A stretch of DNA of 19,512 nt, from positions 1 through 19,512 of the forward strand of contig RBNI01002150.1 in NCBI GenBank assembly GCA_003990745.1. The letters run 5' to 3'. Under the pieces are notes generated by a model. That model was not told the DNA's origin, made no database searches, and worked only from the letters and a program-made list of their open reading frames with translations. The DNA is from Jimgerdemannia flammicorona. Lineage: Eukaryota > Mucoromycota > Endogonomycetes > Endogonales > Endogonaceae. Shown in pieces: positions 3,001 to 19,512 of this stretch (within the stretch, counting starts at the first letter, position 1; every line of letters starts with the position of its first letter). The position numbers and the translations under genes were made by a program.

Positions 3001-3393
3001 CCCTTCCTCCAAGAGAATACCCTCCTCCAACAGCTCTCTTATCCATACAATCCTCTCACCCCTAGCCGCAGGGCAGTAGCAGGAGCCCACCTTCACTGAT
3101 TCCCACCCTGGCCAATTCCAATCTCCCCAGACCAAACAATCACCCCAGCTCCAGATGTTCCCCAATTCGCTCCTACCCTTCCTCACCAAAATCGCTACCT
3201 TACTAAACCAAGCTGTGGCCCTACCCCATTCCCTAGTCCACTCTACCCGATCGTCCTCATCCTCACATCGAACATCCTGCAGTAAAAAGAGATCAGCCTC
3301 CAATCCCTTGAGCCAAGTAAAAATGTTCTTGCGCCACCCAGAGCCCCGTAACCCATTCACATTCAAAGATAAAATGTTGGTTGTACTGTTCAT
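1..3393 (-). pseudogene. LINE A ORF2: endonuclease/reverse transcriptase, 3' partial, stop-ridden
   Basis: The ORF2 polyprotein should nick target DNA and reverse-transcribe the element from the nick. Domains in order: an APE-like endonuclease (about 3380-2700) with LNVNGL, LLQDVR, GGDFN and RIDWVL; a reverse transcriptase (about 2050-1000) with FLDQEKAYDHV near 1550-1590, GVPQGDLLSP and AFADD (catalytic Asp pair at 1273-1278); and a C-terminal CCHC zinc knuckle (CEEC ... EHWLGEC, 225-154). The frame stays open to base 1. Internal stops are TAG 2896, TAG 2845, TAG 2818, TGA 2656, TGA 1546, TAG 826, TGA 751 and TAG 346. B keeps TGG (Trp) at 2896, 2845, 2818, 2656, 826 and 346. The endonuclease SDH motif reads SVH here (2716-2718), whereas B has Asp. 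The RT order and motifs suggest the L1/Tx1 side of LINE diversity; the clade is uncertain. Confidence 0.87.
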
Positions 3394-3424
3394 AAGGAAT
3401 GAATATAGAATGTGGTCCCCTCCT

Positions 3425-5458
3425 CTACAAGTCCGCAGTCCGTACCTCCTGCACCAAGTCCAAGTCATGTTCCGCAGCCAGCTCTCTTTCTCCTGCTTCC
3501 TGTGCTGCCAATGCTCCCAGCAGTTCTACCATCACCCCATCCTCCCACTCCTTAAATTCTTCTCGATACTCCAGACAGGCCCCCTACCAGAGCCACAATC
3601 CATGACGCTCCACCCAGCAGTATGCAGTCCGCTCACCAGCAACCGCCCCAAGTTCTGCCCTCCTCACCTCATCAACCTCATACCCCTCCTCCTCCAGGAA
3701 AATATGCAGAATCTCCACCTTCAGGGCCTCCTCCACTCCATCACCACGCAGAATCCTTGCCTAATGCTCCTCAGGTATTGCCCGCAAGTCCACTTCTCCC
3801 AAAGCTTCAGCCGCCAGATTGTCCATCACTGTGCGCATCCACAGCAGGTTCCCCACCTCCTTCCCTCCTGGGGTCCCTGGCCGCCCTGCTTCCAGCATCG
3901 TAGTATCAACTCCAATACTAGCAGCCTCATCCCACTCCTCCTCAGGAACATCCACCAGCTCGTCCTCGCCGACTGCCACCACCTGACCCTCTTGCCCCAC
4001 ATCAGGAACCCCAAAGCGCATCTGCTGGGCCCCCTGCATCTTTGTATCTACCATCGGCCCTCGCTTCCCAACCGGGCTCCTCCTGATAAGTGGGGGGGGG
4101 GTGGCATCCAACTCCGGCTCCCACACCTCAAAGGTACCATCCACAAACGGGTCCTTGCCCTGCACCCCTCCAGCCTCTGCCTCCTTGGCCTCTACCTTCT
4201 CTCCTCCTTTCCCAGCCCAGACACTGGCTTCAGTGCCTCCAGACTCCTCAGTTCCAACTGTCATCTTCTTCCTCTCTCCTGTCATGCTCGCCAACAGCTC
4301 CCTCTGCCTCAAGCGCCCCTGGGCCCGCTCCCACTGCTTCTTATCCATACGGACGCACTTCCCACCCACCACTTCGAGATGCGTCGACTTCTCATACAGT
4401 TTCCAGGTCTTCGCCCTCCTCTCCACAGCACCACTCAGCTCCTCCAGCACCTCCAACAAATCCTCCTCCTCCTCTTCACTCCCTTTCACCCTTGACACCT
4501 TGCAGACAAAGGCCCCCCACATCAGCACTGAGGGCCAGTCACTCCCCTTCCCTGTGGCCTCCTTGCCTGCCAGCTGAATCCTGACATCCACATCTCCCGT
4601 CCTGATCTCAGTCCCCTCCTATACTTAAAAGCCGACGTCTACAATGTCACCATACTCCAACATCACCTCCTCCACCCTCTTTCTCGTCTCCTCCTTAGTC
4701 ACCATGGGCACCCTCTTCACCTGAAGCTGCACTACCCTGGGGTCCCAATGCAAGCACCATACCATGGAGACCACCACCTCTCCAACCACAACACCAGTCT
4801 TCAGTGCCTCGTCCAGTGGACCCGCCTCCTCAAAGCCCACCTCGACCCCTTCCAGACCCTTCAAGAACTTCACCAAAGCTGCCCCAGCCACCTGCTTCGA
4901 GACAAGCCCCAGTACCATCCTTGCTGTCACCGCCAAGCCCCGGAAGCACAAGGTCACCGCAAACTCCGAGATTGATTTCTTGAGTAACGGGGCCACTGCC
5001 AGCCCCGTCACACCATCTGCCAGGTCCTCCTTCCTCATCGGGAACCCCTGTCCCCCCTGGCCATCAGCTGTCACATCTCTTTTTTTCTCCAGATTCGCCG
5101 TCACACCACCATCAGCAGTCCCGCTACTACCCCCAGCAGCCCCTCCACTTCCCCCACCTCCCACTAGCGAAGGCCCAGCTCCCCCAGCAGCCTCAGCCTT
5201 CTGCTTCCCCTTCCCTCTATCCTGATCCCTGCGGGCTCCCATCGGCCAGCCTCCAGTCCTCAGCGTATCCGCGAAGCTCTACCTCTGCTGCCCTCCAGCC
5301 CCCCCACCAGTGCCACTGCCACTACCCGAGCTGCTCTGTCCACTTGAGCCACCGAAAGACCCCATCCCCAGCCCATGCCTCCTCCCAACATACTGCTAGT
5401 CGAAAGCCCCAGGTCCACCCGACCTGGTATGCACCTCGGCTTGCTTGCTGCTTGACAT
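3425..5458 (-). pseudogene. LINE A ORF1 (putative RNA-binding protein), stop-ridden
   Basis: ORF1 of LINE A, 677 codons before the terminal TAG at 3425-3427. The ATG at 5456-5458 is chosen because B has the same context with ATA there. The N-terminal quarter is Gly/Ser-rich. A central region of alternating strands and helices (about 5000-4500) looks like the RRM-like nucleic-acid-binding part found in many LINE ORF1 proteins, but this is inference from pattern only. An acidic run of Glu residues and a charged helical stretch follow (about 4500-4320). Internal stops are TAG 5396, TAG 5279, TAA 4625, TAG 4619, TAG 3761 and TAG 3584, all in one frame. At 5396, 4619 and 3761 copy B has TGG, and at 3584 it has CAG. 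The product would bind LINE RNA and help form the ribonucleoprotein; this copy cannot make a full-length one. Confidence 0.8.
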
Positions 5459-5541
5459 TTTCTTAGTATCTTTCTCCAATAAACGACTTGAAAGTGTGTT
5501 GCGAAAGTGTGTGTAATGTGAATTGTAGTAGAGAAAGATGG
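5459..5541 (-). other. 5' leader of LINE A
   Basis: On the minus strand this stretch aligns with the start of copy B (6815-6899). Shared blocks include TTACACACA, CTTTCAAGT and GGAGAAAGATACTAAG just before the ORF1 start. It defines the approximate 5' end of the family and shows that A is not 5' truncated. No TATA box or other promoter element is obvious here. Confidence 0.65.
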
Positions 5542-5599
5542 TGGGCTGCCCTTCAGATACAGTTGGCTAAGAGAGTAGATAATGAGTAGTTGATAGTCA

Positions 5600-6720
5600 G
5601 ATGGACTCTGACTATTTAGATTGGACTTACTTGATAGCTGGGAAGGCACAGAGTTCAGAATAGAAGATATAGATATCAGAATGAGGCTGACAGACCAGGT
5701 GAATATGGGGAAAGCAACTGATTGACTGGTAGTTCTCAAATAGTAATCTGTAGAGTATAAGGTCTCATGAGTAAATTGAAGGCTGGAGGAAGAAAAGGAC
5801 TTACTAGAGGTGTTAGAGGATCTAGCTGAGGCTGTGAAGAGAAGAAGATTGATCTGGAAGAAGTTTGAGGCCAAGATGATAGTGGAGATCATGAATGGAA
5901 AGATGGTGAGGCTAGATTGGGTGGCCTGGGAGAGGGCACAGGAGAGGTATATTCAGAAGGATCTGCTGACTAAGTTGAGAGGGGGGCAGCTGAGGGAACC
6001 TCCACTGAAGAAGCTGGATCAAGAGTGAGTTCCTGAGCAGAGAAGAAGGGATTAGCACCAGAGATGACCTCAGGAGGGAGAGGAGGCCTAGGGCTGAGTG
6101 TCATAGTAAAGGATACAGAGATGTAGAGGTGAACCACTCCCAGTATAGAGTACTAGAGTGGGCTGGAGGAGATAATGAACTGTAGGATATACTGGAGGAG
6201 GATTGAGATGAGTCAGTAAGAAATGCAGAGGATGGTCAGATAGAAGAGAGGAATTGGGTGGCCTAGAGAGTAGAAGAGGCTGTGGGTGAGGAGAAATAGT
6301 TGTGAAAAATACTAAAGAATGTGACAGTGGAGGAGCTAGGGGGAGAGGACTTTAGAGTTCTGAGTGAGAGATACTGGAGTGAAATCCTATAGTGCAAGAA
6401 GATGCTGCAGAAACTCCAAGATGTAATTATGGCAGCTTTGTTGGAAGTGAGATATATCAAGTAGATGATGACAGAGAGGTGGTACTTCTGATAATTACAA
6501 ATAATAGAGCTGTATATGTATATGTAGGGTCTGAGAAAGAGGCTGGCAAAGTAGCAGGTAGTGTATAATGAGCATCAGATGGAGATGAAAGCTGTGGATG
6601 GTATAGATTGTCAGGAGATCTTAGAGGTTTTAGAGACTCAGCAGGGAGAAATGGATGAGCTTAAGACAGAGAGGAACCTAGATCTTGCTGGGGATGTGGT
6701 GAGTATAGAATTATAGGGTA
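5600..6720 (+). pseudogene. LINE E ORF1 remnant
   Basis: The C-terminal half of ORF1 with many stops and some frame changes. The best preserved part is 5810-6025, where a 72-codon open stretch matches A's charged helical segment (compare LEELSGAVERRAKTWK in A with LEDLAEAVKRRRLIWK here, and VAWERAQ with KQWERAQ). A second recognisable block near 6330-6400 contains VLSERYW, where B has VISNEYW and A has a TAG in place of the Trp. It is more decayed than A and contains no functional protein. Confidence 0.7.
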
Positions 6721-6751
6721 GATGGCTATTCTTCTAATAATATTATTCAAT

Positions 6752-6814
6752 ATAAATAGTATAACTAGAATCTTGTCTTTGAATATCAATGAGATATAAG
6801 GAGTAATGAGATAT
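6752..6814 (+). pseudogene. LINE E ORF2, first codons (endonuclease N-terminus)
   Basis: Reads N-S-I-T-R-I-L-S-L-N-I-N-E-I, matching the ORF2 start of A (NSTTNILSLNVNGL). The ATG has become ATA at 6752-6754. The reading breaks off at the left target-site duplication of B and continues after B at 12538. Confidence 0.75.
6798..6814 (+). repeat. Left target-site duplication of LINE B
   Basis: AAGGAGTAATGAGATAT here matches AAGGAGTAATAAGATAT at 12521-12537 at 16 of 17 positions. The first two A residues of the right copy could also be part of the poly(A) tail, so the duplication is 15-17 bp. It belongs to E's endonuclease coding sequence. Confidence 0.85.
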
Positions 6815-6899
6815 AACAGGCCTTTCTCAGCTACTATTCATGTTACACACATTTTACAACATACTTTCAAGTTGTTTATTGGAGAAAGATACTAAGGCA

Positions 6900-8921
6900 A
6901 TAGCAAACAGCAAGCAATCTGGAGTGTGTACTAGGCAGGGCAGCCCTAACACATTTGACTGGCAGCAGGTGGGGAGAGGTCCTGGCCTGGGGGGAGGTAT
7001 GAGGGAGCTGTTGGTAAGAGGACAAGGAGGGGGAGGAGATAGTAGTGAAGGACAGGGGTCTGGGAGGGCAAGCTATATGGAGATGATAAAGGGGAGACAG
7101 CAGATATTGGGGCTAGAGAGATGGCTGAAGAAAGGCAAAGAAATAGAGAAGACAGCAGTTTACAGGGGAGTAGCCCTTGGTAGTGAGAGCAGTAGAGCTG
7201 AGGAAGTAGTGGCTGGGGTAAGTATGATGACTGATAGGGATGGGACTGCCAATCTGGAAAAAAATCCAGATATGACTGCTGATGGCACAGCTGAGCAGCA
7301 GGGGCTTAGAGGGCAGGGGAACTTGGCAGATAGTGTGATGGACCTGGTAGTAGCCCCATTACTCAAAAAATTGATCTCAGTATTCACTGTTATACTGTAC
7401 TTCTGAGGCCTTGCAGTGATGGCAAAAATGGTATTGGGTCTTATCAATAAGCAGATAGCTGGAGCAGCATCAGTTAAGTTTCTGAAGGGACTAGAGGGAG
7501 TGGAAGTGGGCTTTGAAAAGGCCAAGCATTTGGAGGAGGTGCTGAAGGTTGACCTGACTGTTGGAGAAGTGTTTGTCCCTATAGCAAACTGCCTAAGATG
7601 GGACCCCAGGGTGGTACAACTGCTGGTAAAAGGAGTGCCAATGGTGACAGTAGTAGAGACAAGAAGGAGAGTTGAGGAGATTATGGCAGAGTATAGTAAG
7701 GTGGTGGATATTGACTTTAGGGTTTGGGAAGGAATCTCACTCAGGACTGGAGATGTAGATGTGAGGATGCAGCTAGTTTGGAAGGAGGCTACTGGGAAGA
7801 TAAGAGACTGGCTGTTAGTGATGGTCTGGGGGGCAATCTTATATAAGGTAATAAGGGTGAAGGGGAGTGAGGAGGAGGAAGAGGATTTGTTGAAAGCATT
7901 GGAAGAGCTGAGTGATGTGGTAGAGCAGTGGGCAACAGCTTGGAAGGCTTTTATATAGTCAACATACTTAGAGGTAGTAGATGGAAAGTAGATTAGAATA
8001 GACAAGGAGTAGGGGAAAAGAGCTCAGGGGTGCAAGTGCTAGAAGAAGCTATTGGCTAAACTGGAAGATGGACCTTAGAAGGATGTGGGTGGAATGGTGG
8101 AGGTGGGGAGTACCAAAGTGAGTGTCTAGGCTGATGAGAATAGTGGGAGTGCAGAGAAGGTGGCAGGGGAGAACAGGCAAGTAACTGGCAAGGATCAGTA
8201 TGCTGATAGTATATTTGAGGTCTGGAAGGAGGACTAGGAGGGATTGTCTACCCCTACTCCTCTTATCAGGTGAGGTCTGGCTTCTCAATGTAGAGTGGTA
8301 GAGGATGTGCCAATGAGGGGAGCCCAGTATGTGCAGTTTAGAGTTCCTGAGTTGGCAAATAGGGGACAAGTGGTGGAGGTTGGAGAGGAGGAACTAGTGG
8401 ATGTCCTGGAGGTGAGAAACAAGTCTGCGAGTGCAGGGGCAGACATCACAATGCTGGATAGAGGAAGACCAGTGACTCCTGGGGGGAAGAAGGTGGGGAA
8501 CCTGCTGTGGATATATAGAATGATGAATAACTTGGTGGCTGAGGAGTTGAGGGAGGTGGACTTGAGAGTAATAAGTAATGAGTATTGGGCAAAGATCCTG
8601 CAAGGGGATGGGGTAGAGCTGGCATTGATGGCAGAAATCCTTGCAGTATATCTGGAGAAGGAAGGGTATGAGGTGGATAAGGAGTAGGAGGCTGAGCTGG
8701 GAGGAGTTACTGGTGAGAGGGCTAAATACTGTTGGGACAAGTATCATAGATTGCAGCTCTGGCAGGAGGCCTGCCTGGAGTACCATGAGGAGTTTGAAGA
8801 GAAGGCAGATAGGGAGATGAATGAGCTATTGACTGGACTGGAGGCTCAGAGGATTGAAGAGAAAGTAGTGACTACAGAGTATAATCTGGATATAGTGCAA
8901 GAAGAGGTGAATATGGAGTAG
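6900..8921 (+). pseudogene. LINE B ORF1, start codon lost, stop-ridden
   Basis: Homologue of A's ORF1 and of similar length (674 codons to the terminal TAG at 8919). The initiator aligned with A's ATG is ATA at 6900-6902. Open stretches up to 7403, 7416-7955 and 8295-8684 are all in the same frame. Shared landmarks with A include TANLEK, FLKGLEGVEVGFE, WDPRVVQL, the acidic run before DLL, and VGNLLW. Internal stops include TGA 7404 (A has an Arg codon) and TAG 7956. Between 7956 and 8294 there are several more TAG codons, two of which align with Gln in A. Putative RNA-binding role as for A; not functional. Confidence 0.8.
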
Positions 8922-8955
8922 TAGGGATATACTGGATAATACACTGAGTTTTATT

Positions 8956-11900
8956 ATGAATAGTACAATCAATATTTTCTCTTTAAATATGAATAGGTTA
9001 TGGGGCACTTCTTGACATAGGAACATTTTTACTTAGCTGAAGAGATTGGAGGCCAATCTCTTTCTCTTATAGGATGTTATATATAAGGATGATTTGGATA
9101 GGCTGAAATGGATGAAGGAATGGGGAGGTGAGACAGTTTGGAAGGGCAAGGTTGGGATTCTGGTATGTAAGAGTTGAGGGGTGATACAGGAGATGAGGAG
9201 CTGAGGGGAGAGATTGGTCTGGGGAGAGTAGATATATATAGGCTGGGAGCCAGTTACAGTGGGCTGCTATTACTGCCCTGCTATACAGAGTGAGTAGTGG
9301 ATTGGATGAAGGGTCTCCAGGAGAGTTGGGTCCTTACAGAGGCTGGGGTAGATGTGCTTGGTTGTGATTTCAATATGGTCTGAGATGCATGAGTAGATAG
9401 AATAGATGGTGGAAGGGGAGGTGAGAATAGCAGTAGAGAGTTGGTGGTATGGGAGGATGTGGAAAGGCTAAGTACTTTGGTAGATGCTGGTAGGGAGTAT
9501 TGGGGAGATAGGAGGGTATACACACACTGGGCAGAGAGTCTAGAGATAAGGATTGACTAGATGCTAACAGCCAGCTACTGAGGATTAGATATTGGAAAGT
9601 CACTGGAAGTGGAATGGTGCCCTTGGTTGGATCATTGGGGGCTGTTAGGGCAGGGATATTTTGGGGGGAGTAGAGATGGACCTGGACATTGGTGCCTCAA
9701 TTCTTCATTACTACGTGATAGGATCTATTGAAATGTATGAGTGGAAGACATTCAACTGAAGGTGGAGAGCTGGAGACAGGAATGTGCCCTGGTTGGTGTT
9801 AGGTTGATGAGGATGAAAGCAATGGCCAAGGTTTACTGAAATGAGGGTGGTAGGGAGGCTGGGAAGCAGAGAAGGTGATGGGTGAGATGGGCTTCTGTTA
9901 GACTGATCAGACTCTTGGAGAATTGGGCAGAGCTAGCTATAGTGGTAGAGAGGAGAGAGAATTGGAGATTGATGAGGACAAAAAAGGAGATTGGGGAGTT
10001 ACAACAGGTGCTGAGAGATGAGGAGGAGGCAAGGATGCAGAACATCATGGTACAGCTTCATTGGCAGAGGTTGAAAGAAGGAGAGAGGACCTCTTTGTAT
10101 CTCATGAGGGCCCTTCAGGCGAGAAGGATACAGTAATGGTGGGAGAGGGTGATTGACTCTGACAGTATACTGGTACATGATATATAAGACATCCTTGATT
10201 CACTAAAGGAGTGATGGAGTAGATTATGGAGTGAGGAGGAGGGGGGGGCAGATGCTGCTGCTATTGACTAGGCATTGGAGGATTGGCACCCTCCTTGAGT
10301 AGATGGGCTGGGTGACTTGATATTGCCAGTATAGAAGGGGGAGATCTACTAGGTTCCTGCTGCAATAACCCTAGGCATGGCACCTGGGGAGGATGGTCTG
10401 CCCTGAGACTTCTGGAAGAAGGTAGTGGAAGTCCTAGGAGTTCTGGGTGAGATGATGGCATTGTATAACTCCATATTACAGACAGGGAGATGGGTGGAAG
10501 AACAGGATCTGGGGTTGGTGACACTGCTTTACAAGAACAAAGAAAGGTGTGAGGACTAGAAGAACTGGTAGCTGAAATACTGCTAGATATAGACAGATAG
10601 TTAGTGACTAAAGTAATGATCATGTGACTACAAAAGGTGGCTCAGTAAGTCCTGACTATTGAGCAGAGAGGCTATGTGGGAGGCCAGCTCATTAGGGATG
10701 GTACAGCTTAGGTGCATAAAGTTATTGAAGAGGCTAGAGCCTGTGGACTAGAGAGGAGTATCATTTCCCTTAGGTAGGAGAGTACCCCAGGGGGACCCAC
10801 TGTCCTCCATTCTATATGCCCTTTCCCTAGAGCCCCTAATGGACAGAATTAGACAGAAGATAATGGAGCTCTCTGTCTTTGGGATTGGGTGGAAAGTTGG
10901 GGCCTTTGCAGATAATATAGTTGTTGGCCTAGGATCTATAGCTGAGATTGAGGAGCTCAAGAAGACAGTGGAGTGGTATGAGGAGAACTCTGGTGCCAAA
11001 CTCAATTGGCACAAGTAGGAAACAATAGTGTTGGGCAATGGTCTGGTGAGTGGAGACATTATTGGAACAATCTTCTCTACTAGTGAGATAGTGCAGTACT
11101 TGGGTATTTATTTGTCAGTATATAGATCAGTACTGGCTAGACTTTAGTGGAAGCAGAGGATTGGAATCTGACGAGAGGCCCTGCGGAGTTGGGAGGGTCG
11201 CCATTTATCTCTAGCAGGGTATGTCTTGATCTAAATATCTATTGGCTGCTGAAGTTGTGGTATCTGGCTTATCATCTGGACTTCCCAGCCTGGAGTAATT
11301 GTTGAAGCTGGCCAAGGAGTGGTTCTGTGCTAGAAGAAGGGATCAGATCAGTTGGGAGGTCTTATCTTTACCAGTGGCAAGAGGAGGACTTGGGCTGGTC
11401 GTTGTTTAAAGTAGCTAAACTGCTTAAGGACATGGTAGTTGAAGAGAGCAGTGGAATTGAGAGGAGGCAGTTGAGTTCCCCTATTACAGAAGGTCTGGAA
11501 GATAAGAACCTCACCAAGAGGCTCAACAGGTGATCTCCTTTCATTGGTGGGGCTTCAGAAGACCACACAGCTGCAATATAAAGGCTTCTGGTAGAGAGTA
11601 GCAGAGGGGGCATGCAATATTGGAATTCATTGGCAGAGCAATAAAGGAGAGGTAACTTGGAACCTAGTGATGTAGAGATGAGACTGAGTGTTGTTGGGAG
11701 ACATTCCCTTAATCATATTCAACATTGGTAATGGGATAGACTGCCAAAGAGGACAAGGCCAGGTTCTGTGGCCTAGTAGATGGCAGGGAGTTGGTTTTAG
11801 GGAAGAATAGAACTGGCATAGTATGTGGACCTGGAGTACTGAAATGAGGGGGTAGATGCCATCAAAGTACTGGGTGGTCTGATGGCACATGCTGAGGAGA

Positions 11901-12441
11901 AATGTGATGCTCAATTTCTACTCAGATCACCTTATTGAGGAGGGTTGCTTTGACTGTGAGGAGTACCACAATGTAGGGCAGAAAGGGAGATATGTGCAGA
12001 TACCTGAACATTAGCTGGGGGAGTGTGAGGTACTTAGTGACTGCTGGAGGGCTGTTGGAGACTATTAGGGGTAGTGTATCAGAGTGATAGCATACAGGAT
12101 CAGTGGGAGGATCTGATAAATAAACTGGTAGGGGGGGGGTGAGAAAGGAGTGGCTTACCTTAGACTGGGTTTTGGTGATTTGGGTAGAGTTGGCCAGTCA
12201 CTGGCTATTTGTTTTTGAAGATAGGAGGAGACTTGACTGGGGGGACTGGTTGTTGTATTGGCAAGACCTTATGGAAGACATCTTGACAGGCTAGTGGCTT
12301 GGTTGGGGGCTGCAGGGTGGTTGAAAGTACTGCTTGGTGGAGAACTGTAGGCAGAGTCAGGAGAGGGTAGGGGTAGTGGGTGAGAAGATGCCCTTTATTC
12401 GTAATGATGCAGAGAGGGGCTCCCCTATGGAAATTAGATAG
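8956..12441 (+). pseudogene. LINE B ORF2: endonuclease/reverse transcriptase remnant
   Basis: Starts at ATG 8956 (MNSTINIFSLNMN), matching A's ORF2. Endonuclease remnants run to about 9640 and include GCDFNMV, VYTHW and a preserved LDHW near 9620. RT remnants include APGEDGLP (about 10380), VPQGDPLS (about 10785) and AFAD-N, so the second catalytic Asp is Asn (10914-10916). A deletion near 10750-10770 removes about 165 bp relative to A, including the motif-A Asp. The zinc knuckle survives in outline near 11950-12030 with EH-stop-LGEC. The last codons (about 12140-12441) show what A lacks beyond the window. Stops and frame changes are frequent throughout. The end is inferred from a TAG at 12439. 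Confidence 0.8.
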
Positions 12442-12477
12442 GGGGAGGGGATGATGCATAATTATGAATAGAATGGT

Positions 12478-12483
12478 AATAAA
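12478..12483 (+). promoter_or_regulatory. Polyadenylation signal of LINE B
   Basis: A perfect AATAAA lies 21 bp before the poly(A) tract. This is the normal spacing for a cleavage and polyadenylation signal and supports the 3' end of B. Confidence 0.75.
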
Positions 12484-12504
12484 TGGCAGAGTCCAAGTGA
12501 CTAT

Positions 12505-12522
12505 AAAAAAAAAAAAAAAAAA
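12505..12522 (+). other. Poly(A) tail of LINE B
   Basis: A run of 18 A residues follows the AATAAA and directly precedes the right target-site duplication, as expected for target-primed reverse transcription of a polyadenylated RNA. Confidence 0.88.
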
Positions 12523-12537
12523 GGAGTAATAAGATAT
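12521..12537 (+). repeat. Right target-site duplication of LINE B
   Basis: Matches 6798-6814 at 16 of 17 positions. The first two A residues overlap the end of the poly(A) run. Confidence 0.85.
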
Positions 12538-12739
12538 CAAAATATCATTAGATGACTGAAAGAGATAGATGTAGATTTGTTCCTACTATAAGATGTTAGG
12601 TATAATGAGGACTTGGATATTTTAGGCTGAACAAAAGAATGGGGTGGTTAAACTTTTTGGCAGGAGCATGTGGATATTCTAGTCAGGATGAATAAGGGAG
12701 ATATTGAGATTATTGGACATTAGAGGAGCAGAGTAGTGT
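12538..12739 (+). mobile_element. LINE copy E, right part (endonuclease fragment)
   Basis: Continuation of E's ORF2 after the B insertion. It reads LKEIDVDLFLLQDVRYNEDL, aligned with A's LKGLEADLFLLQDVR, and then TKEWGG and ILVRMNKG. Stops occur where A has Trp. E stops in mid-domain at 12739, where telomere repeats begin, so about 80% of E's ORF2 is missing at this point. Confidence 0.8.
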
Positions 12740-12753
12740 GGTTAGGGTTAGGG
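12740..12753 (+). repeat. Interstitial telomere repeats, tract 1
   Basis: GGTTAGGGTTAGGG, two TTAGGG units reading rightward. They directly abut a LINE coding fragment on the left and the PLE on the right. The next bases (GTGAAGGTTGTGGGG) could be degenerate repeats. The orientation is that of a right-hand chromosome end. Confidence 0.85.
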
Positions 12754-13205
12754 TGAAGGTTGTGGGGTTTAAGCAAAGATTTGTGCAAAAAATTGACAGA
12801 GTCGAGTAATAGCCATGTTAGATCACAGAAATCTTTCGAACATCTCTCATCAGACTTGCTATTGCTTAAATACCTTTCACTTGTCCACTTCAGACTTAGA
12901 AATTGGTTACTGTTTTACACAATATAACATGAAATTAATCATGAATGAGAGTGAATTACTTCTCGGGTTTCACAATTAGGTAGCTTTGATTCACTGATCA
13001 AATCGCATTAAAATAAAATTTTAATTAAGTTGTAATTGTATTACTAAGTGATTTTTCTTTAAGATTAGGGTCAGGCGCATGCTACCAATTAGAATAAAAC
13101 ACACATTGCATAGTGCAGGAAAAGGAAAGATGAAGTGTGACATTTCACAACTGGTTATATATATTATAGGGGTGTTTTGCCTGCCATAGATAACACCTTC
13201 TTGTT
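12754..13205 (-). other. Noncoding 3' region of the PLE
   Basis: AT-rich, with stops in all frames I read and no recognisable domain, including no GIY-YIG endonuclease. It contains a lone TTAGGG-like hexamer near 13064 that is not part of an array. It is most likely the PLE 3' UTR. Confidence 0.5.
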
Positions 13206-14338
13206 CTACTTCTCAACTAGCTTCTTTAAGTTGAGACTGCGATAAATAACTGGGCTGTACTTCACAGAACAGTGTTTTGACAGAGTATTCATCACTCTGG
13301 CAGTCAAAGATAGTGCATGATAATGGTAATGATTACCGGAATAATTGTGCATATATGGCATAACATTTATCTCACCGAGCTTTGGGCCAAACTCTTCATT
13401 ATTCATACGAGAATCCTCCAAAAGCATACGGGAGCGGTCTTGATATGATTCAAGACTCAAAAGGTAAGCAGATTCAGTTTAAAGGCACGTTGTATTAAAA
13501 ACTGATAGAATTCGGAAATCGCTATGTCATAATTATCATATTCTGATGAGTTCTAGATAAGGTGAGTATTCTCGCCTCTAAGCCATCCATCGATGTATAC
13601 TTATGGGTAATACATATCTGGCATAGAATATATATGAAGATTCATTTCTTTATTAAAGTTTCAGAACCGAATTGACCAAGTCTTATTGGCATTGATCTTC
13701 ACATATGCTTTGAGATCGCAAAATGTAACTTTATCAGCTATATATTGTGTGAAGTACAAACTAGAGCTCATTGTTTCTAACAATATTATAACATGCTTTG
13801 AAGCTTCATTGCCCTTGTCCATAATGATAATGATGTCATTGATAAATTAGAAGTAAAGTTCCAGCAAAATCCCTTGGTCATCAAGTCTTAATTCATGAAA
13901 GCCGATAAAGAGATTCGCTATATTGGGAGCTGAAGGCGTGCCCATTGCAATTTCTTGAATTTGTTGATAGGTACATCCGGCATATTGAATAAATGCGAAC
14001 TTAAGCACAAAGCGCAATACTTTCATATAATATCGGTGAGTATGTTTCTTAGAATGATCAAATTGTATAAGAACAACAAATATTTTCTATAGACATTCAT
14101 CGATATTAATATTAATATACATTAACTCAACATCTGCTGCTGGCAACGTCATGGATCTGGAAAAGAACTTTCCTTCAATATGATTAATTATATATTTGGA
14201 GTCGGGAGCTACCATTCGACATATAGAAATATATAGTTTTAGGTAGGCGTCTACAGCTCTCGAAGCATCACTAGTAATCCAGCTTTAGTTCGGAGAGATA
14301 GGTTGTGACTTAACAGGATTTTTATGAAGTTTTGGTAG
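13206..14338 (-). pseudogene. Penelope-like reverse transcriptase fragment
   Basis: Minus-strand reading from 14338 gives LPKLHKNP at the edge, then motif A as ADVELMYININI (Asp at 14132-14134; the family pattern is DVxSLYTNI). Next come YQQIQEIAMGTPSAPNIANLF (Met codon at 13943-13945), motif C as FINDI (13835-13846), a thumb region with MNLHIYSM and GWLRGE, and NSSEYDN. After one frameshift near 13460 it continues as SYQDRSRMLL and ends with SPVIYRSLNLKKLVEK before TAG 13206. MGTPxAPxxANLF and the late YRxxxNLKxLV block are typical of PLE RTs, which are relatives of telomerase RT. It is dead: at least seven in-frame stops, and the catalytic Asp pair reads Asn-Asp. The N-terminal region before motif 1 is missing. 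Confidence 0.82.
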
Positions 14339-14340
14339 AA

Positions 14341-14354
14341 GGGTTAGGGTTAGG
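14341..14354 (+). repeat. Interstitial telomere repeats, tract 2
   Basis: GGGTTAGGGTTAGG, about two units in the same orientation as tracts 1 and 3. It separates the truncated 5' edge of the PLE from the 3' end of LINE C with no other sequence between them. Confidence 0.88.
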
Positions 14355-14747
14355 CTTCAAGGAAGAATTTATTCATTGTAGAGAAGATAAGATACATCGG
14401 AGCAACAAAAGACAAAGACTCCTAAGATGAGAAAAGCAAAACGAGGCCAGCGAAGTAAACAACTAGCTAAGAAGTACAAAACAAAGGCCAGAGAGGTGAC
14501 CACCCTATGGGTGAGCTGGATAAAACCATTTTGTCATGGCCGTAGAGATAATAAATGCAAGAAGCAAAGAAGAGAGGGACTAAGAAATAATACACACTCG
14601 CTCGGCACCAACTACACGAACCGTATCGACAACCAAACACCAAGCGACTGAAATGAGATGAATAACTCAAAGCACTCTCAGCAACAGGGGAACCAACCAG
14701 GCAAATGAGGGGAAAGAAGGAAATAAAGAAAATGTGCGATCGCTCGA
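14355..14747 (-). other. 3' UTR of LINE C
   Basis: About 390 bp (about 580 bp if the TGA at 14934 is the true end of ORF2). I see no domain in it. It ends directly at telomere tract 2 without an A-run, unlike copy B. Confidence 0.6.
14368..14373 (-). promoter_or_regulatory. AATAAA near the 3' end of LINE C
   Basis: Minus-strand AATAAA lies 13 bp before the telomere junction. The spacing is short but plausible for a polyadenylation signal. If it is used, the tail has been lost or replaced by telomere repeats. Confidence 0.5.
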
Positions 14748-14933
14748 TCACCTAAGCATCTTTGTAATCTCGGCCAGGCAGAACCTGACCGCAAGATGGC
14801 CACCAGAATTACATATGGCGTCGATAGCATGGTAGGCTGTCTCGTGAAGAGCGTGAAGAGGGTAGGTACAAAGTTCCTCCTGCCATTCGTCACCGGTAAA
14901 CCAATCGAGTTGTTCATCTCGATCAGAAGATCC
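14748..14933 (-). other. In-frame continuation of LINE C ORF2 beyond TGA
   Basis: After the TGA, 61 codons run in frame to a second TGA at 14748-14750. The composition is protein-like (DRDEQLDWFTGDEW, LHETAYHAIDAI, FCLAEITKML) and continues past the zinc knuckle. The first TGA may be a recent nonsense mutation or a stop subject to readthrough. Confidence 0.5.
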
Positions 14934-17795
14934 TCAGAATGCAGAATACGAACCATCGAGAAGACCGCACCTGAGGAGATGGCCACGATGAAACTTATCT
15001 CCACAGGGGCAGGGGCGGGGTTGGCCAAAGTAGCCATAGTGCCAGGCGAGCGCGGAACGCACAAGCCGGGGGGGGAAGGAGAGGACGCGGTCGGCGCCCC
15101 GCGACCACAAGCGGCCTTTGGGGGTAATATACCGAACGAGAGCCTGGGAGGAGGAGGCCCATTCCTGCAGTAGCTGATCCCGAAGGAAGGACTGGAGGAA
15201 GGAGCAGAGCGAGCGAGTCTTGCGGACCTGGGGACGGAGGTCCCAGTACCAGTCGAGGAAGTCAAGCCAGGAGGTCCAATGCCGGAACTTGTCAATGATA
15301 GAATCCGGGGGACGCGTGACAAAGCGCTCGCTAAGGGGGCCGATGGGGTTGTTGCCGGACTTGCTACACCAATCCAGATGGGCTTGGAACATGCAGCAGA
15401 GGTCAGACGTACGACGAAGGAAGGAAGGGAGGCCAAGAATCGAGCTGCCAAGCAAGAGACGGCCGGAAAATCCAACCGCCCAAGCGACAGCGTCATCAAA
15501 GACCTTCTCGGGACGCTTCAATACCTGAAGCCCCGTGGTAGTAGCTGGGCAGGAGGCTCGTAGAAGGGGTAGGCTGTATTCCCGCTGAGGCCTAATAAAT
15601 GTCCGTATGATGACCAGCTTGACCATTGGCGACCAGAGGGGACCACGAGCATGGCAGAATCCAAGAGTTCGTTCCGCCTTTGCCGCATTCTGCAACGCAA
15701 GTTCGATAAAGTCAAACTCTTTGTTGGTGTACAGCACGCCCAGGTATACGTAAGAGGAGGGTCGCGGGCAAGGTTCGCCCCCAATCCGTATGGCACAGTC
15801 AGCTGGGCCAACATAACCACACTTCTTAGGATTGAGTTCCATACCGTTCACCAGGAGCCAATCCTCACAGAAGTCAATCATCCTTTGCCCTTCCGTGGCA
15901 GTGCGGGGGGTAAGGGCGATATCATCAGCGAAGAAGAGACCTAGGGAGAAGTCGTACTCCTTGAACAGTTCATCAAAGGAGGTGGCGAGGGGGTCGATAA
16001 AGACATCAAAGAGCCAGGGGGAGAGGAGGGAGCCTTGGAAAAGACCGCGCTCAGTGGGGACCGAAGGGGTAACGAGGCCATTAACGACCACCTGATAGGA
16101 ACAGTGGTTGAACAGGCTTCGGATAATGCTAAGGAGGGCCACATCGGCACCTCGCGCCTCAAGACGTGAAAGAATAAGCTTGAGGGGGACTCGGTCATAT
16201 GCCTGCCAGAGGTCGAGAAAGACACGGCGGCCCCATCCCTTGGCCCACGTCTCATGCAAAAGCAAGACATGGGAGAGGGATGAGAAGCGGGTTCGGAAGC
16301 CACCTTGGCAGCATGACATTTCTGTCAAGCTACTTCGGCTCTTGATGTATCCTTCCAAACACCGCTCGAAGAGTCTACGAAACATTTCAGTCAGAGCAAT
16401 AGGGCGAAACCCATCAATCATTTGTGAATCCTCCTTCTTGGGGATCGGGGCGATGATGGCGGAATTCCAGTGGCGGGGAGTGAGCCCCCAGACCACGCAC
16501 ATCTGGAAGAAGAAGGACAAGGCTTTGGAGAGGCTACAGGGGGTATCAGCCTCACCTGCCATCACCCGAAGGATCCGGACGTGTAGGGAGTCAGCTCCAC
16601 AGGCCTTCGAGAGGGAGTAGCTGCAGATAGCCCTCCAAACCGCCGGCTGGTCGAACCAACTCTGCAGTCTAAGAGCACCCACGCCAAGGGGGAAGACATC
16701 TTCTGAGTCATCAAGACGGAGGGAGGCATCTGGCTGGCCGAAGATAGTGGTAAAATAATTAACCACGTCGTTGAACACCGGGACAGTGGGGGATCGAGAT
16801 TGAAGGGGAGCAGGGGGGGTGGAGCGATACGCCCGCTTAAAACCACGGATGGCATCAGAGACCGAAGACGCACTGCGAAGGAGGTCCCGCCGAGGGAGTG
16901 GCGCCGCCCTGATCTCTCTTGCGTCGTACGAGCCAAGAATGTCCTCACAAACTGACTGTAGACCAGAGGTCAAAAGGGTATCCAGGGAATCAATGAACTG
17001 CTGGCAATCTTCCACAGAGCGAAAGCCAGCAACATGATCCCGGACAGAGTAGATGGACCTAACAACCGTATCGCAAACGATATCGGCTGATTCCCGAAGG
17101 TGAGCTTGAACGACCGGGTTGGTCAGGTATTTCGCAGAGTAACGGTGGACACCAGCCAGGGCGGCGATCGGCAAGGGGGAGAAGGGAAAGGAAACAGTAA
17201 GGAGAGAGGGGTGGTCGGTGGCGACAGGAGGGGTGGAGCAGGTAAGTGATGCGTAGAGGGACGCGGTGGCAAATGCGTGATCAACGCGTGTAGAGCCAGC
17301 CACCGGGGTCAGATGATTCAACGACCACGTCATCAGGGAGGTGTCGACGACATCCATCCGATCACGAGGACCAGAGTTGACGTCACCAAGGCGGGCACCG
17401 AAACGAGTGTTGATGTCACCGATCAAAAGCGCCTTGCCCGGAAAGGGACCAGACACAAGATCACGGAAACCACCAATGGGAAGAGAGGGGGGGGCGTAGA
17501 CCCCGACCAAAGCCAGGCCCTGGAATATGAGCCAGATATGGAAGGGATCGGCGGAGGACCCGGAAATAAGGGGGGCGAAACGGTTTGACACGAGGACCAC
17601 AAGCCCACCATTCTGGTGGCCCATGATCCTGTGCGACGTCGAAGGAGATGACATGTGAATGAGCGGAGAGGGACGCAGCGGAATATGCCACGTTTCACAT
17701 ATGAAAAGAATGTCGAGGGCAGGACCAATCAACCGACTGAGCACATCGAACTTATCCTGGGGTAGTCCGTGTGCATTGAGGAACCCGACTCTCAT
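14934..17795 (-). CDS. LINE C ORF2: APE-type endonuclease / reverse transcriptase
   Basis: 953 codons, uninterrupted. An APE-like endonuclease occupies about residues 1-200 with all key motifs: N7 in FLNAHGL, E34 in ICETW, D127/N129 in GDIN, D172 in RVDH, and D194/H195 in TDHP. The reverse transcriptase spans about 390-700, with PIPKKED and FRPIALTE, motif A LDLWQAYDRV (D528), QGSLLSPWLF and FADD (D624, D625). A C-terminal CCHC knuckle uses C929, C931, H939 and C943. It would nick target DNA and prime reverse transcription of the element RNA. The ATG overlaps the TGA that ends ORF1 if ORF1's frame breaks are bridged. After the TGA at 14934-14936 the same frame stays open for 61 protein-like codons, so the true C-terminus may lie at 14748. 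All catalytic residues that I can check are present, so activity is possible. Confidence 0.93.
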   Translation of the reverse strand: MRVGFLNAHGLPQDKFDVLSRLIGPALDILFICETWHIPLRPSPLIHMSSPSTSHRIMGHQNGGLVVLVSNRFAPLISGSSADPFHIWLIFQGLALVGVYAPPSLPIGGFRDLVSGPFPGKALLIGDINTRFGARLGDVNSGPRDRMDVVDTSLMTWSLNHLTPVAGSTRVDHAFATASLYASLTCSTPPVATDHPSLLTVSFPFSPLPIAALAGVHRYSAKYLTNPVVQAHLRESADIVCDTVVRSIYSVRDHVAGFRSVEDCQQFIDSLDTLLTSGLQSVCEDILGSYDAREIRAAPLPRRDLLRSASSVSDAIRGFKRAYRSTPPAPLQSRSPTVPVFNDVVNYFTTIFGQPDASLRLDDSEDVFPLGVGALRLQSWFDQPAVWRAICSYSLSKACGADSLHVRILRVMAGEADTPCSLSKALSFFFQMCVVWGLTPRHWNSAIIAPIPKKEDSQMIDGFRPIALTEMFRRLFERCLEGYIKSRSSLTEMSCCQGGFRTRFSSLSHVLLLHETWAKGWGRRVFLDLWQAYDRVPLKLILSRLEARGADVALLSIIRSLFNHCSYQVVVNGLVTPSVPTERGLFQGSLLSPWLFDVFIDPLATSFDELFKEYDFSLGLFFADDIALTPRTATEGQRMIDFCEDWLLVNGMELNPKKCGYVGPADCAIRIGGEPCPRPSSYVYLGVLYTNKEFDFIELALQNAAKAERTLGFCHARGPLWSPMVKLVIIRTFIRPQREYSLPLLRASCPATTTGLQVLKRPEKVFDDAVAWAVGFSGRLLLGSSILGLPSFLRRTSDLCCMFQAHLDWCSKSGNNPIGPLSERFVTRPPDSIIDKFRHWTSWLDFLDWYWDLRPQVRKTRSLCSFLQSFLRDQLLQEWASSSQALVRYITPKGRLWSRGADRVLSFPPRLVRSALAWHYGYFGQPRPCPCGDKFHRGHLLRCGLLDGSYSAF

Positions 17796-19289
17796 TGTGG
17801 GCCGGGCGCGTTAGCGCCAACAGCATGAGAAGCACCCGAAACGGAAGCCTCAGCTTCCAAATCCATCGCCATCTCCCCGGTCACAGCCACCGTACCACCT
17901 GCCTTCGAAGCAGGGCCGGCCGCCGGGGGGGTGGAGGAGGGGAGAGTAAGGCCAAGTTCCGTGGCCCAGGCCTGTAGAAGGTCTGCACCTCCGGCTGCTT
18001 TGTAGTGGCATCGCCCGCCAACTGCCGGACCCGAGCATGGAATGATTGGAGTACCCGTGCCTTCACGGCCTCCGTGGCGTTCTTGTTGCGTGGGAGCGCA
18101 GGGTCCCAGGCCGTCAGCACCGAGAACCCGAGCGCCTTCATCTTCTTTTGGAATGCCGTGATATAATCAGGGCGGAGAAGGAATTCGATGGTTGACGCCG
18201 AGACGTACGACATATTGAGAACCTTTGACAACATCACATGGACGTCATACAAGTTCTTCCGAATCTGCCCGATCTTGAGATGGGCAAATCCGTCGACGTA
18301 AACGCGCTACAACTGGGTGCCCTTCTCAGTCGGCGACAGATGAGAGGTCAGCTTGCAGGTCATGCGTGAGAGAGCGGCGGCGGCGGCAGCTCTCTCCGGC
18401 TCAGGGTAGGCCTGGGTCCTATCCTTGATAAAGACCTTCTTGGCGGCGGCGGCGTACAATTTAGGGGGGGAGGGGGTCGAAGCGGAGGACGAAGACGAAC
18501 CGGCAGCACTGGGACCCGCAGGCAAGGCCTGGGGCACAGGCTCGGGGGCCTTGGCCATACCCTTTTTAGGGGGCGTGGCTTTAGCGGCCGAGGGCGCAAC
18601 CATGGGAGTTGCCTCCTTTGGCGGCGCACCTGCTTGTGATGCAGCGGCTTTAGCGGCCCGCTTGTCTGCTCGCTTCTGGGCCTTCGACCGCATGTTCGCG
18701 GCAGGACCAGTAGGAGGGGGGGCCGAGGACTTGGGGGGGGCGGATGTGGAAGGGGCGGCGGGGTACTTCCCGAAGGAGCACCAGATGACGAGGGGGCGGT
18801 GGGCGCAGATCGCGCAGCAAGCTGCGCCATCAGCTGAGCATTGATTTTGGCCAGTTCGGCCACTTGAGTCAGCAGATCTGAGATCTGCTTCCTCATCACG
18901 GCCATCTCCGTGACCAAATCGGGGTCGGCTGAGGGGCCCGCACGACCGGCTGTCGGGGTCATTCCCAAACTAGTGTTCAGGCGACCGCGCTTATTCCGAT
19001 TGAGGGGCGGGGGCGTGAGAGAGAAAGATGTGCGCTGGGCGTCGTGGTCCGAATCAGAAGAGATCGCAATCTCTTCGTCATCTTCCGCATCGCACAGAGA
19101 AGATAAATACGCCGATATCGGTCGTGCATCCCCGCACGACCTGCACATCGCCGTAAGGCTACCCTCGCCGAAGCCGAGGGAGAGGAGACCGACGCCGCGA
19201 CATTCAGCGCAGCGGAGCGAGGCGCCGAAGCGCGCGAAGAGGCGGGTGGCGTTGCCGTCATCACCAACGACGGACGAGGTGGCCGACAT
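17792..19289 (-). pseudogene. LINE C ORF1, broken by two frame changes and one TAG
   Basis: Putative RNA-binding ORF1 protein. I place the start at ATG 19287-19289 (MSATSSVV), the first ATG well downstream of the TATA box. An in-frame upstream ATG at 19367 would lie at about the predicted transcription start. Landmarks: two CxxC pairs (C27/C30, C49/C52) that could bind one zinc; an acidic Ser-rich stretch; a predicted coiled coil at about 124-162 (MRKQISDLLTQVAELAKINA); a Pro/Ala-rich linker; a basic segment (MRSKAQKRADKRAAKAA) at 18693; and a compact domain starting RVYVDGFAHLKIG. The frame changes within the Pro-rich linker (best candidate the G8 run at 18733-18740) and again at G7, 17925-17931. 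One TAG lies at 18307-18309. The final frame ends in TGA overlapping ORF2's ATG. It is either mutated or partly a homopolymer sequencing artefact. Confidence 0.75.
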
Positions 19290-19308
19290 TGCCGAAATAG
19301 GCGAAGGT

Positions 19309-19327
19309 GTGTTTGTTTGTTTGTTTG
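19309..19327 (+). repeat. TTTG tetranucleotide microsatellite
   Basis: Four to five tandem GTTT units on the plus strand (CAAA repeats in the element's 5' UTR on the minus strand), immediately before ORF1. Confidence 0.85.
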
Positions 19328-19342
19328 AAATTGTGAAACGTG

Positions 19343-19354
19343 GGTCACGTGACC
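19343..19354. promoter_or_regulatory. Palindromic E-box (GGTCACGTGACC)
   Basis: A perfect 12-bp palindrome centred on CACGTG, the core bound by Cbf1/Pho4/USF-type bHLH factors. It lies about 40 bp downstream of the TATA box on the element's sense strand, so it would be near or within the transcribed leader. Confidence 0.5.
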
Positions 19355-19391
19355 TTTGTTTGTGCAACGAAAAAATAATGGGGAAGGGGGG

Positions 19392-19399
19392 TATTTATA
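19392..19399 (-). promoter_or_regulatory. TATA box of LINE C (TATAAATA)
   Basis: Minus-strand TATAAATA flanked by GGG and CCC. It predicts transcription starting at about 19362-19370, roughly 75 bp before the ORF1 ATG. It is about 100 bp inside the element's apparent 5' end. Confidence 0.6.
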
Positions 19400-19490
19400 C
19401 CCGATGAGAGGCTTAGCTAATCAAAGTGACTGCTTTCTTAATTTGGAATAGCTTCGGGCCGTAAAGCCGAGTCTAACCAAATGGGGAAAT

Positions 19491-19496
19491 CACGTG
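19491..19496. promoter_or_regulatory. Second CACGTG E-box beside telomere tract 3
   Basis: CACGTG four bases from the telomere repeats, about 90 bp upstream of the TATA box, a typical place for an activator site. Confidence 0.4.
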
Positions 19497-19499
19497 AGT

Positions 19500-19512
19500 G
19501 GTTAGGGTTAGG
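19500..19512 (+). repeat. Telomere repeats, tract 3 (window end)
   Basis: GGTTAGGGTTAGG, two units running to the last base. The orientation is that of the G-rich strand at a right-hand chromosome end, so the array may continue beyond the window or be interrupted again by another element. Confidence 0.85.

What the first reader, a model, noticed from the sequence alone, without database searches (positions are those of the whole stretch)
12740..19512. Stack of former chromosome ends: three same-direction telomere tracts separating two different retroelements
TTAGGG tracts at 12740-12753, 14341-14354 and 19500-19512 all run rightward, and each lies directly at an element boundary with no other sequence between. 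The PLE and LINE C fill the two gaps completely and both have the 3' end inward and the 5' end outward. Random interstitial telomere repeats would not coincide with element ends three times in one orientation. The layout reads as successive rounds of element addition and telomere capping, similar in principle to rotifer terminons.
Basis: partly seen in the sequence, partly recalled or inferred. Interest (0 to 1): 0.88.

Follow-up and report, generated by a model that had tools for sequence, protein, structure and literature searches.

The report
Telomere-capped stacks of two retroelements
At chromosome ends of an unnamed fungus, two different kinds of retroelement appear to be piled up head-to-tail with a short piece of telomere between the layers, a pattern that suggests they are repeatedly added onto worn or broken ends although the fungus also carries telomerase-like genes.

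Summary
Three rightward TTAGGG tracts abut the element ends: an endonuclease-less Penelope-like element (PLE, 12755-14339, 5'-truncated) and a full-length LINE C (14355-19499), both with 3' ends inward. The window is a whole contig; tract 3 is its last 13 bases. The pattern recurs. Of 52 LINE C 3' junctions, 51 carry at least 6 telomeric bases in one register; of 30 PLE 3' junctions, 28 carry at least 5. All 51 recognised LINE C/PLE inward neighbours point the same way. Among listed hits, all 20 contigs with two or more LINE C copies have them on one strand. Of 16 contig-end telomere caps, 14 sit on the 5' side of a LINE C, 10 near-complete and 4 truncated. TERT-like loci exist. Best reading: successive additions at chromosome ends primed by the G-rich strand, with telomerase re-capping. 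A nick by LINE C's own endonuclease, or copying between ends, remain live rivals. MoTeR, FoTeR, Athena and the Zymoseptoria telomeric PLE are close precedents. New here: an APE-type LINE and an endonuclease-less PLE sharing fungal stacks. A new variant of a known kind.

The parts
12523..12739 (+). probable broken endonuclease-coding region of an ordinary LINE, cut off exactly at tract 1: the bottom layer
   Evidence: translation resembles, by eye, the APE-type endonuclease region encoded at 2896-3525 (PF03372 in the latter); preceded by a poly(A) run at 12505-12522
12740..12754 (+). telomere tract 1, at the PLE 3' end
12755..14339 (-). endonuclease-less Penelope-like element, 3' part only, 5'-truncated inside the reverse transcriptase, decayed by in-frame stops
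14340..14354 (+). telomere tract 2, at the PLE truncation point and the LINE C 3' end
14355..19499 (-). LINE C, full-length APE-type non-LTR retrotransposon, 3' end inward, 5' end outward
14934..17801 (-). LINE C ORF2: endonuclease-like N-terminus, reverse transcriptase (PF00078, E 2e-20), C-terminal Cys/His motif (by eye); shorter at the C-terminus than the copy in L019
17881..19286 (-). LINE C ORF1 region, not open throughout in this copy
   Evidence: compare L028
19500..19512 (+). telomere tract 3, at the LINE C 5' end and the contig end

Best explanation
The region is the end of a chromosome (or a former end) built from the inside outwards. An ordinary LINE was broken or eroded. A PLE RNA was then reverse transcribed from the 3' end of the exposed G-rich strand, leaving its 3' end inward and a truncated 5' end outward. 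A LINE C RNA was later added on top in the same way. In each addition a short telomeric stretch lies between the old end and the new element, and telomerase adds repeats to the outermost 5' end. SHOWN: fixed orientation, fixed telomeric register at both 3' ends, many different inward break points, short tracts (median 14-15 nt for LINE C), caps lying on the 5' side of LINE C, TERT-like loci in the assembly, no GIY-YIG domain found in the PLE frames tested. INFERRED: priming by the chromosome's own 3' end; pairing between telomere-complementary repeats at the RNA 3' end and the G strand as the cause of the fixed register; telomerase as the maker of the caps.
For: 51 of 52 LINE C and 28 of 30 PLE 3' junctions carry at least 6 and 5 in-register telomeric bases (runs allowing isolated mismatches); an exact run of 5 or more at random positions has probability 0.3%. 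Inward neighbours: LINE C 26, PLE 12, ordinary LINE 7, unrecognised 7 for LINE C; LINE C 11, PLE 2, ordinary LINE 5, unrecognised 12 for PLE; all 51 recognised LINE C/PLE neighbours in the same orientation. Among listed places, 20 of 20 contigs with two or more LINE C copies have one strand; 12 gaps between consecutive copies are 13-43 nt, six of them 13. 14 of 16 contig-end caps rest on LINE C, 10 near-complete, 4 truncated. In the five stacks where a LINE C neighbour is broken and the outward side of the next element is known (C943, only 19 bases short; C3766, C3929, C859, C4807), the missing part does not resume beyond that element. TERT RNA-binding domain matches at C1532, C310, C5416. Break points in LINE C share more bases with the telomeric tract than random ones, mean 1.45 against 0.69, P about 0.002, n = 20.
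Against: Eleven of those 20 break points show no overlap and 8 of them have 9 or more bases aligned to neither part, so the microhomology signal is modest. LINE C has its own endonuclease-like domain, so it need not use a free end. Contigs are short (10-60 kb among those seen), no reads were seen, and placement at real chromosome ends is inferred from caps and contig ends. In 7 of 31 contigs the innermost LINE C has more sequence outward than inward. Two caps (C175, C476) do not rest on LINE C, and one interstitial array (C729) lies inside an ordinary LINE that continues on both sides. At least 5 of the 30 PLE junctions (L038, L040, L041, L044, L045) are the repeated 3' region at the PLE's own 5' side rather than a new addition.
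Confidence: 0.62

Rival explanations
1. LINE C is a site-specific element that nicks the G strand inside residual telomere repeats with its own APE-type endonuclease, as TRAS/SART or (with another endonuclease) MoTeR do; only the PLE needs a free end. Short tracts are what is left between the nick and the old boundary.
For: Conserved endonuclease-like N-terminus: Exo_endo_phos matches 6 of 8 aligned proteins, best E 1.4e-5, window copy E 0.033 and below the curated cut-off; invariant E36, G128-D129-I130-N131, D174-H175, H197. A fixed register is expected of a sequence-specific nick.
Against: Caps run to about 65-180 bp even as cut by contig ends, yet the longest in-register LINE C tract is 27 nt in 52, so nicks would have to fall next to the old boundary, unless longer tracts are lost later. 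The PLE shows a similarly fixed register, and no endonuclease was found in it.
Confidence: 0.22
2. Most stacks were not made by retrotransposition at that end but copied from other ends by recombination (break-induced replication) seeded by short TTAGGG stretches.
For: The PLE ends at position 321-322 before LINE C at 6 loci, with the very same junction letters at three of them by eye (C1121, C6888, C1318). Such copying is described for MoTeR arrays (passages of PMC7367193). It would give one orientation, one register and varied inward neighbours.
Against: The LINE C pieces at 5 of those loci are hardly more alike (mean 0.859) than others (0.819-0.838), and no pair among 19 aligned copies exceeds 0.94. 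Break points are otherwise many and different.
Confidence: 0.14
3. Chance interstitial telomere repeats or misassembly.
For: Contigs are short and repetitive; no read data could be seen; one array (C729) does lie inside an ordinary LINE.
Against: Dozens of different junctions obey one rule against a 0.3% background.
Confidence: 0.02

Closest known systems
MoTeR1/MoTeR2 of Magnaporthe oryzae, and FoTeR of Fusarium oxysporum
   Same: Non-LTR elements in fungal telomeres, 5' end toward the chromosome end; MoTeR arrays head-to-tail with (TTAGGG)n from half a unit to more than 20, stable ones with at most two repeats (passages of PMC12857005 and PMC7367193).
   Different: They carry a restriction-like (REL) endonuclease; LINE C has an APE-like domain before the RT and shares its stacks with a PLE.
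Telomere-localised putative PLE family 4 of Mycosphaerella graminicola (Zymoseptoria)
   Same: About 3.4-3.5 kb, internal tandem repeats, one to three TTAGGG at the 3' end, orientation fixed to the chromosome end, described as lacking the endonuclease (passages of PMC4522978). Here the unit is about 3.28 kb with 82-bp repeats.
   Different: No alternation with a telomeric APE-type LINE appears in the passages read.
Athena PLEs and terminons of bdelloid rotifers; Hebe
   Same: Endonuclease-less PLEs thought to prime from exposed chromosome ends and then receive telomeric repeats (passages of PMC3846280); at one rotifer telomere two Athena elements, an LTR element (Juno) and the APE-type LINE Hebe lie in one chain (passages of PMC2861651).
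   Different: Hebe is described as preferentially subtelomeric; LINE C joins telomere repeats at its 3' end in 51 of 52 junctions. Terminons themselves are known to me from recall and listings only.
TRAS/SART of insects, Zepp of Chlorella, HeT-A/TART of Drosophila
   Same: Telomeric non-LTR elements; HeT-A/TART arrays are head-to-tail at the end (listing, passages of PMC10088271; further details recalled).
   Different: Other hosts; Drosophila is the telomerase exception (abstract), whereas TERT-like loci are present here. Relationship of LINE C to these lineages was not tested.

Membership tests
Endonuclease-deficient telomeric PLE | PLE-type reverse transcriptase | tested here: met
   RVT_1 weak match (E 7e-4, below the curated cut-off) on the 675-aa frame of L018; nearest proteins P0025 and P0026 have RVT_1 above it; PLE-like motifs such as FYILPKLHKNP are named from recall
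Endonuclease-deficient telomeric PLE | no GIY-YIG endonuclease | tested here: met
   no match in the 5 PLE reading frames given to Pfam, among them the C-terminal one of L019; absence rests on decayed copies
Endonuclease-deficient telomeric PLE | telomeric repeats at the 3' end, 5' end outward | tested here: met
   28 of 30 junctions, 5 of the 30 being the inner repeated copy
Endonuclease-deficient telomeric PLE | place in the PLE tree next to Coprina or Athena | not tested
   no reference sequences at hand; PMC1890498 not held
MoTeR/FoTeR (REL) clade | C-terminal restriction-like endonuclease | not tested
   no REL motif or tree was run; an N-terminal APE-like domain is present
APE-type LINE | N-terminal APE endonuclease and RT | tested here: met
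   Exo_endo_phos in 6 of 8 aligned proteins (window copy itself only E 0.033, below cut-off), RVT_1 in 8 of 8; no structure could be predicted
Rotifer terminon | large units with PLE RT and additional ORFs between telomere repeats | tested here: inconclusive
   units here are a PLE of about 3.3 kb and a LINE of about 5.1 kb, each separated by telomere repeats; the definition is recalled and extra ORFs were not searched for
Telomere-specific insertion (TRAS/SART-like) | endonuclease cuts telomere repeats | not testable with these tools
   needs an enzyme assay

The most novel reading that the evidence does not exclude
Two unrelated reverse transcriptases, one with and one without an endonuclease, have each acquired RNA 3' ends carrying telomere-complementary repeats, and both act as part-time telomerases that add whole elements to worn or broken ends in a fungus that still has telomerase.
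Probability: 0.35. Interest if true: 0.82.

Novelty: new variant of a known kind. Interest (0 to 1): 0.62.

Why it matters
Telomeric retroelements are usually described one kind at a time. A fungal genome in which an APE-type LINE and an endonuclease-less PLE share the same ends, with the same orientation and a similarly fixed telomeric register, is a natural side-by-side test of whether a free chromosome end and RNA pairing suffice, or a nick is needed. It also offers a record of repeated end loss and rescue in an organism that keeps TERT-like genes.

Tried and rejected
Chance interstitial repeats: rejected as a general explanation. Ordinary insertion of one element into another: not seen in the five stacks where both sides are known; it may explain the ordinary LINE that follows the interrupted LINE C of C663. 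Loss of telomerase: not supported, TERT-like loci are present; by eye C310 looks decayed, and the stops at C1532 and C5416 fall where introns are likely. Recent segmental copying as sole cause: not supported. The G-quadruplex idea gave no four-G-run motif in LINE C or the PLE piece of the window. PDB sequence matches for ORF2 with E below 0.001 are reverse transcriptases only, mostly R2 and LINE-1; none of note for the PLE. No structure could be predicted. Six searches for a published precedent, of which I saw the top listings, showed no paper on a PLE and an APE-type LINE alternating at fungal telomeres; the library is open-access only and the 2007 PLE paper is not held.

Full report
WHAT IS THERE. 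The window is an entire contig, C2150 of 19512 bases, in an assembly of 134.8 Mb in 7754 contigs. Tract 3 is its last 13 bases. Between tracts 1 and 2 lies the 3' part of a Penelope-like element, coded on the - strand, cut off inside its reverse transcriptase and carrying in-frame stops. Between tracts 2 and 3 lies LINE C, 5145 bases, also on the - strand, with an open ORF2 and a disrupted ORF1 region. Under tract 1 lies what looks like the broken endonuclease region of an ordinary LINE of the kind that fills much of the left 12.7 kb.

THE SAME RULE ACROSS THE GENOME. A search with the first 301 bases inside the LINE C 3' end scored 40 of 220 first-look candidates and listed 40 places; with the PLE it scored 40 of 42 and listed 68 matches; with the LINE C 5' end it scored 40 of 92 and listed 40. 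Copy numbers are therefore lower bounds. Of the 39 non-window LINE C 3' places, I fetched the junction of 31 (L077-L107), seven more were already held in other loci, and one (C7229:111) was not read. From all held loci, after removing duplicates and dropping matches shorter than 40 bases, matches not starting at the element's first or second base, and places with under 60 bases of inward flank, 52 LINE C and 30 PLE 3' junctions remained, the window's own included. Allowing isolated mismatches, 51 of 52 and 28 of 30 have at least 6 and 5 telomeric bases in one fixed register...TTAGG|CTTCAAG for LINE C and ...AGGGT|GAAGG for the PLE. Median run 15 for each; longest 27 and 42. With exact runs only, the medians are 14 and 10. 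Random positions reach an exact run of 5 or more in 0.3% of trials. The exceptions are L065 (LINE C-like, 72% identical) and, for the PLE, L062 and L031, which have telomere-like repeats nearby but out of register. At least five of the 30 PLE junctions (L038, L040, L041, L044, L045) are the repeated 3' region at the PLE's own 5' side, not separate additions; without them the count is 23 of 25.

NEIGHBOURS AND ORIENTATION. Inward of the 52 LINE C junctions lie LINE C (26), PLE (12), ordinary LINE (7) or nothing recognised (7); inward of the 30 PLE junctions lie LINE C (11), PLE (2), ordinary LINE (5) or nothing recognised (12). All 51 recognised LINE C/PLE neighbours have the same orientation, with the 5' end outward. 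The 12 ordinary LINE neighbours do not follow that rule: taking the coding strands of the window's two LINEs, I count 2 with the 5' end outward, 9 inward and 1 unclear. LINE C neighbours end at many different places, from position 108 to the full 5145. Combining (39 non-window places each), 20 contigs hold two or more copies, seven of them three, and all 20 have them on one strand; 12 gaps between consecutive copies are 13 to 43 bases, six of them 13.

CHROMOSOME ENDS. A pattern for the inner edge of arrays of three or more repeats found 43 places. Of these, 22 lie within about 200 bases of a contig end, on 16 contigs, and all 22 point outward. Beneath them lies LINE C in 14 of 16: near-complete at its 5' end in C943, C1192, C1856 (position 5093), C2317, C3373, C3766, C4238, C4465, C6737 and C7229; truncated in C17, C3789, C3929 and C6543 (76.7% identical). 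C175 has an ordinary LINE and C476 nothing recognised. Of the 21 interstitial places, I count 14 within about 40 bases of a LINE C or PLE boundary, some of these boundaries diverged; for three (C4857, C6979, C7144) the outward side was not read; the other four (C729, C1656, C3058, C3665) show no LINE C or PLE there, and the array of C729 lies inside an ordinary LINE that continues on both sides. The pattern misses some arrays by design.

MECHANISM. An element whose 3' end is inward, with the outward-running G-rich strand continuing into its antisense strand, is what reverse transcription primed by the 3' end of the G strand would leave. For the PLE no endonuclease was found, so a free end or break is the simplest primer. 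LINE C has an APE-like domain, so a nick is also possible. The register is fixed for both, which suggests pairing between a telomere-complementary RNA end and the G strand; for LINE C a specific nick would do as well. Tracts are short although caps are about 65-180 bases even where contig ends cut them; additions therefore fall on worn ends or next to the old boundary, or longer tracts are lost later: passages of PMC7367193 report that longer interstitial tracts break in MoTeR arrays. One PLE junction (C6214, L019) joins a LINE C break with only AGGGT; by eye LINE C itself has AGGGT at that place, so no added repeat is needed there, though the script credits three shared bases. Overlap at 20 LINE C break points is above chance but modest: 11 of 20 show none. 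Where a LINE C neighbour is broken and the far side of the next element is known (five stacks: C943, C3766, C3929, C859, C4807), the missing part does not resume, which speaks against ordinary internal insertion. In C17 the inner copy has an internal deletion but keeps its last 21 bases at the 5' end, so it is not such a case.

RIVALS AND LIMITS. Recombination between ends, seeded by TTAGGG, would explain much of the pattern; the PLE 321-322/LINE C junction seen at six loci is its best evidence, although the junction letters are the same at only about three of them, and the low similarity among those copies is its best counter-evidence. No reads, no chromosome-scale assembly and no expression data were available. 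LINE C 3' copies differ mainly by transitions (82%), so many are probably old. Three TERT-like loci exist, one of them decayed by eye; telomerase activity is inferred, not shown. The host is a fungus by an RPB2 fragment: the 8 organism-labelled hits among the 120 listed are all fungi.

KNOWN OR NEW. Fungal telomeric LINEs (MoTeR, FoTeR), putative telomeric PLEs in Zymoseptoria and PLEs near Agaricus telomeres, and a rotifer chain holding Athena and an APE-type LINE are in print. I read passages, not whole papers. What I did not see in the listings of six searches is an APE-type LINE and an endonuclease-less PLE alternating with telomere tracts in a fungus. I therefore call this a new variant of a known kind.

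Corrected facts: one of the six stacks (C17) was dropped, one place was not read, three arrays had an unread outward side, five PLE junctions are inner repeats, two membership rows were softened.

Noticed in passing
window 1-12522: Two ordinary APE-type LINEs of one family in opposite orientation, about 66-68% alike over most of their length, with strong strand asymmetry (GC skew -0.45 over 1-5300 and +0.45 over 6800-12739); the right one is followed by poly(A) and then by what looks like a third copy.
   Followed up: partly
L036 (C1121:19542-22913) and L041 (C663:9794-13148): A repeated copy of the PLE 3' region (pseudo-LTR-like) is followed by 82-bp tandem units that contain TTAGGG; in L041 it lies at the PLE 5' end. 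LINE C joins at or near that inner TTAGGG at several loci.
   Followed up: partly
G000:C1532, C310, C5416: Three loci match the telomerase RNA-binding domain; by eye C310 looks decayed and C5416 is distinct from the other two.
   Followed up: partly
L117 (C663:22500-28080): An ordinary LINE reading outward follows the point where a LINE C copy stops in this stack.
   Followed up: no
G000:C729:4521-4544 (L051): A telomere array inside an ordinary LINE that continues on both sides, with no LINE C or PLE beside it.
   Followed up: no
LINE C and PLE copies in G000: Changes between LINE C 3' copies are mostly transitions (82%), and several stops in the window's PLE sit, by eye, where other copies have Gln codons, suggesting cytosine deamination or a RIP-like process.
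   Followed up: no
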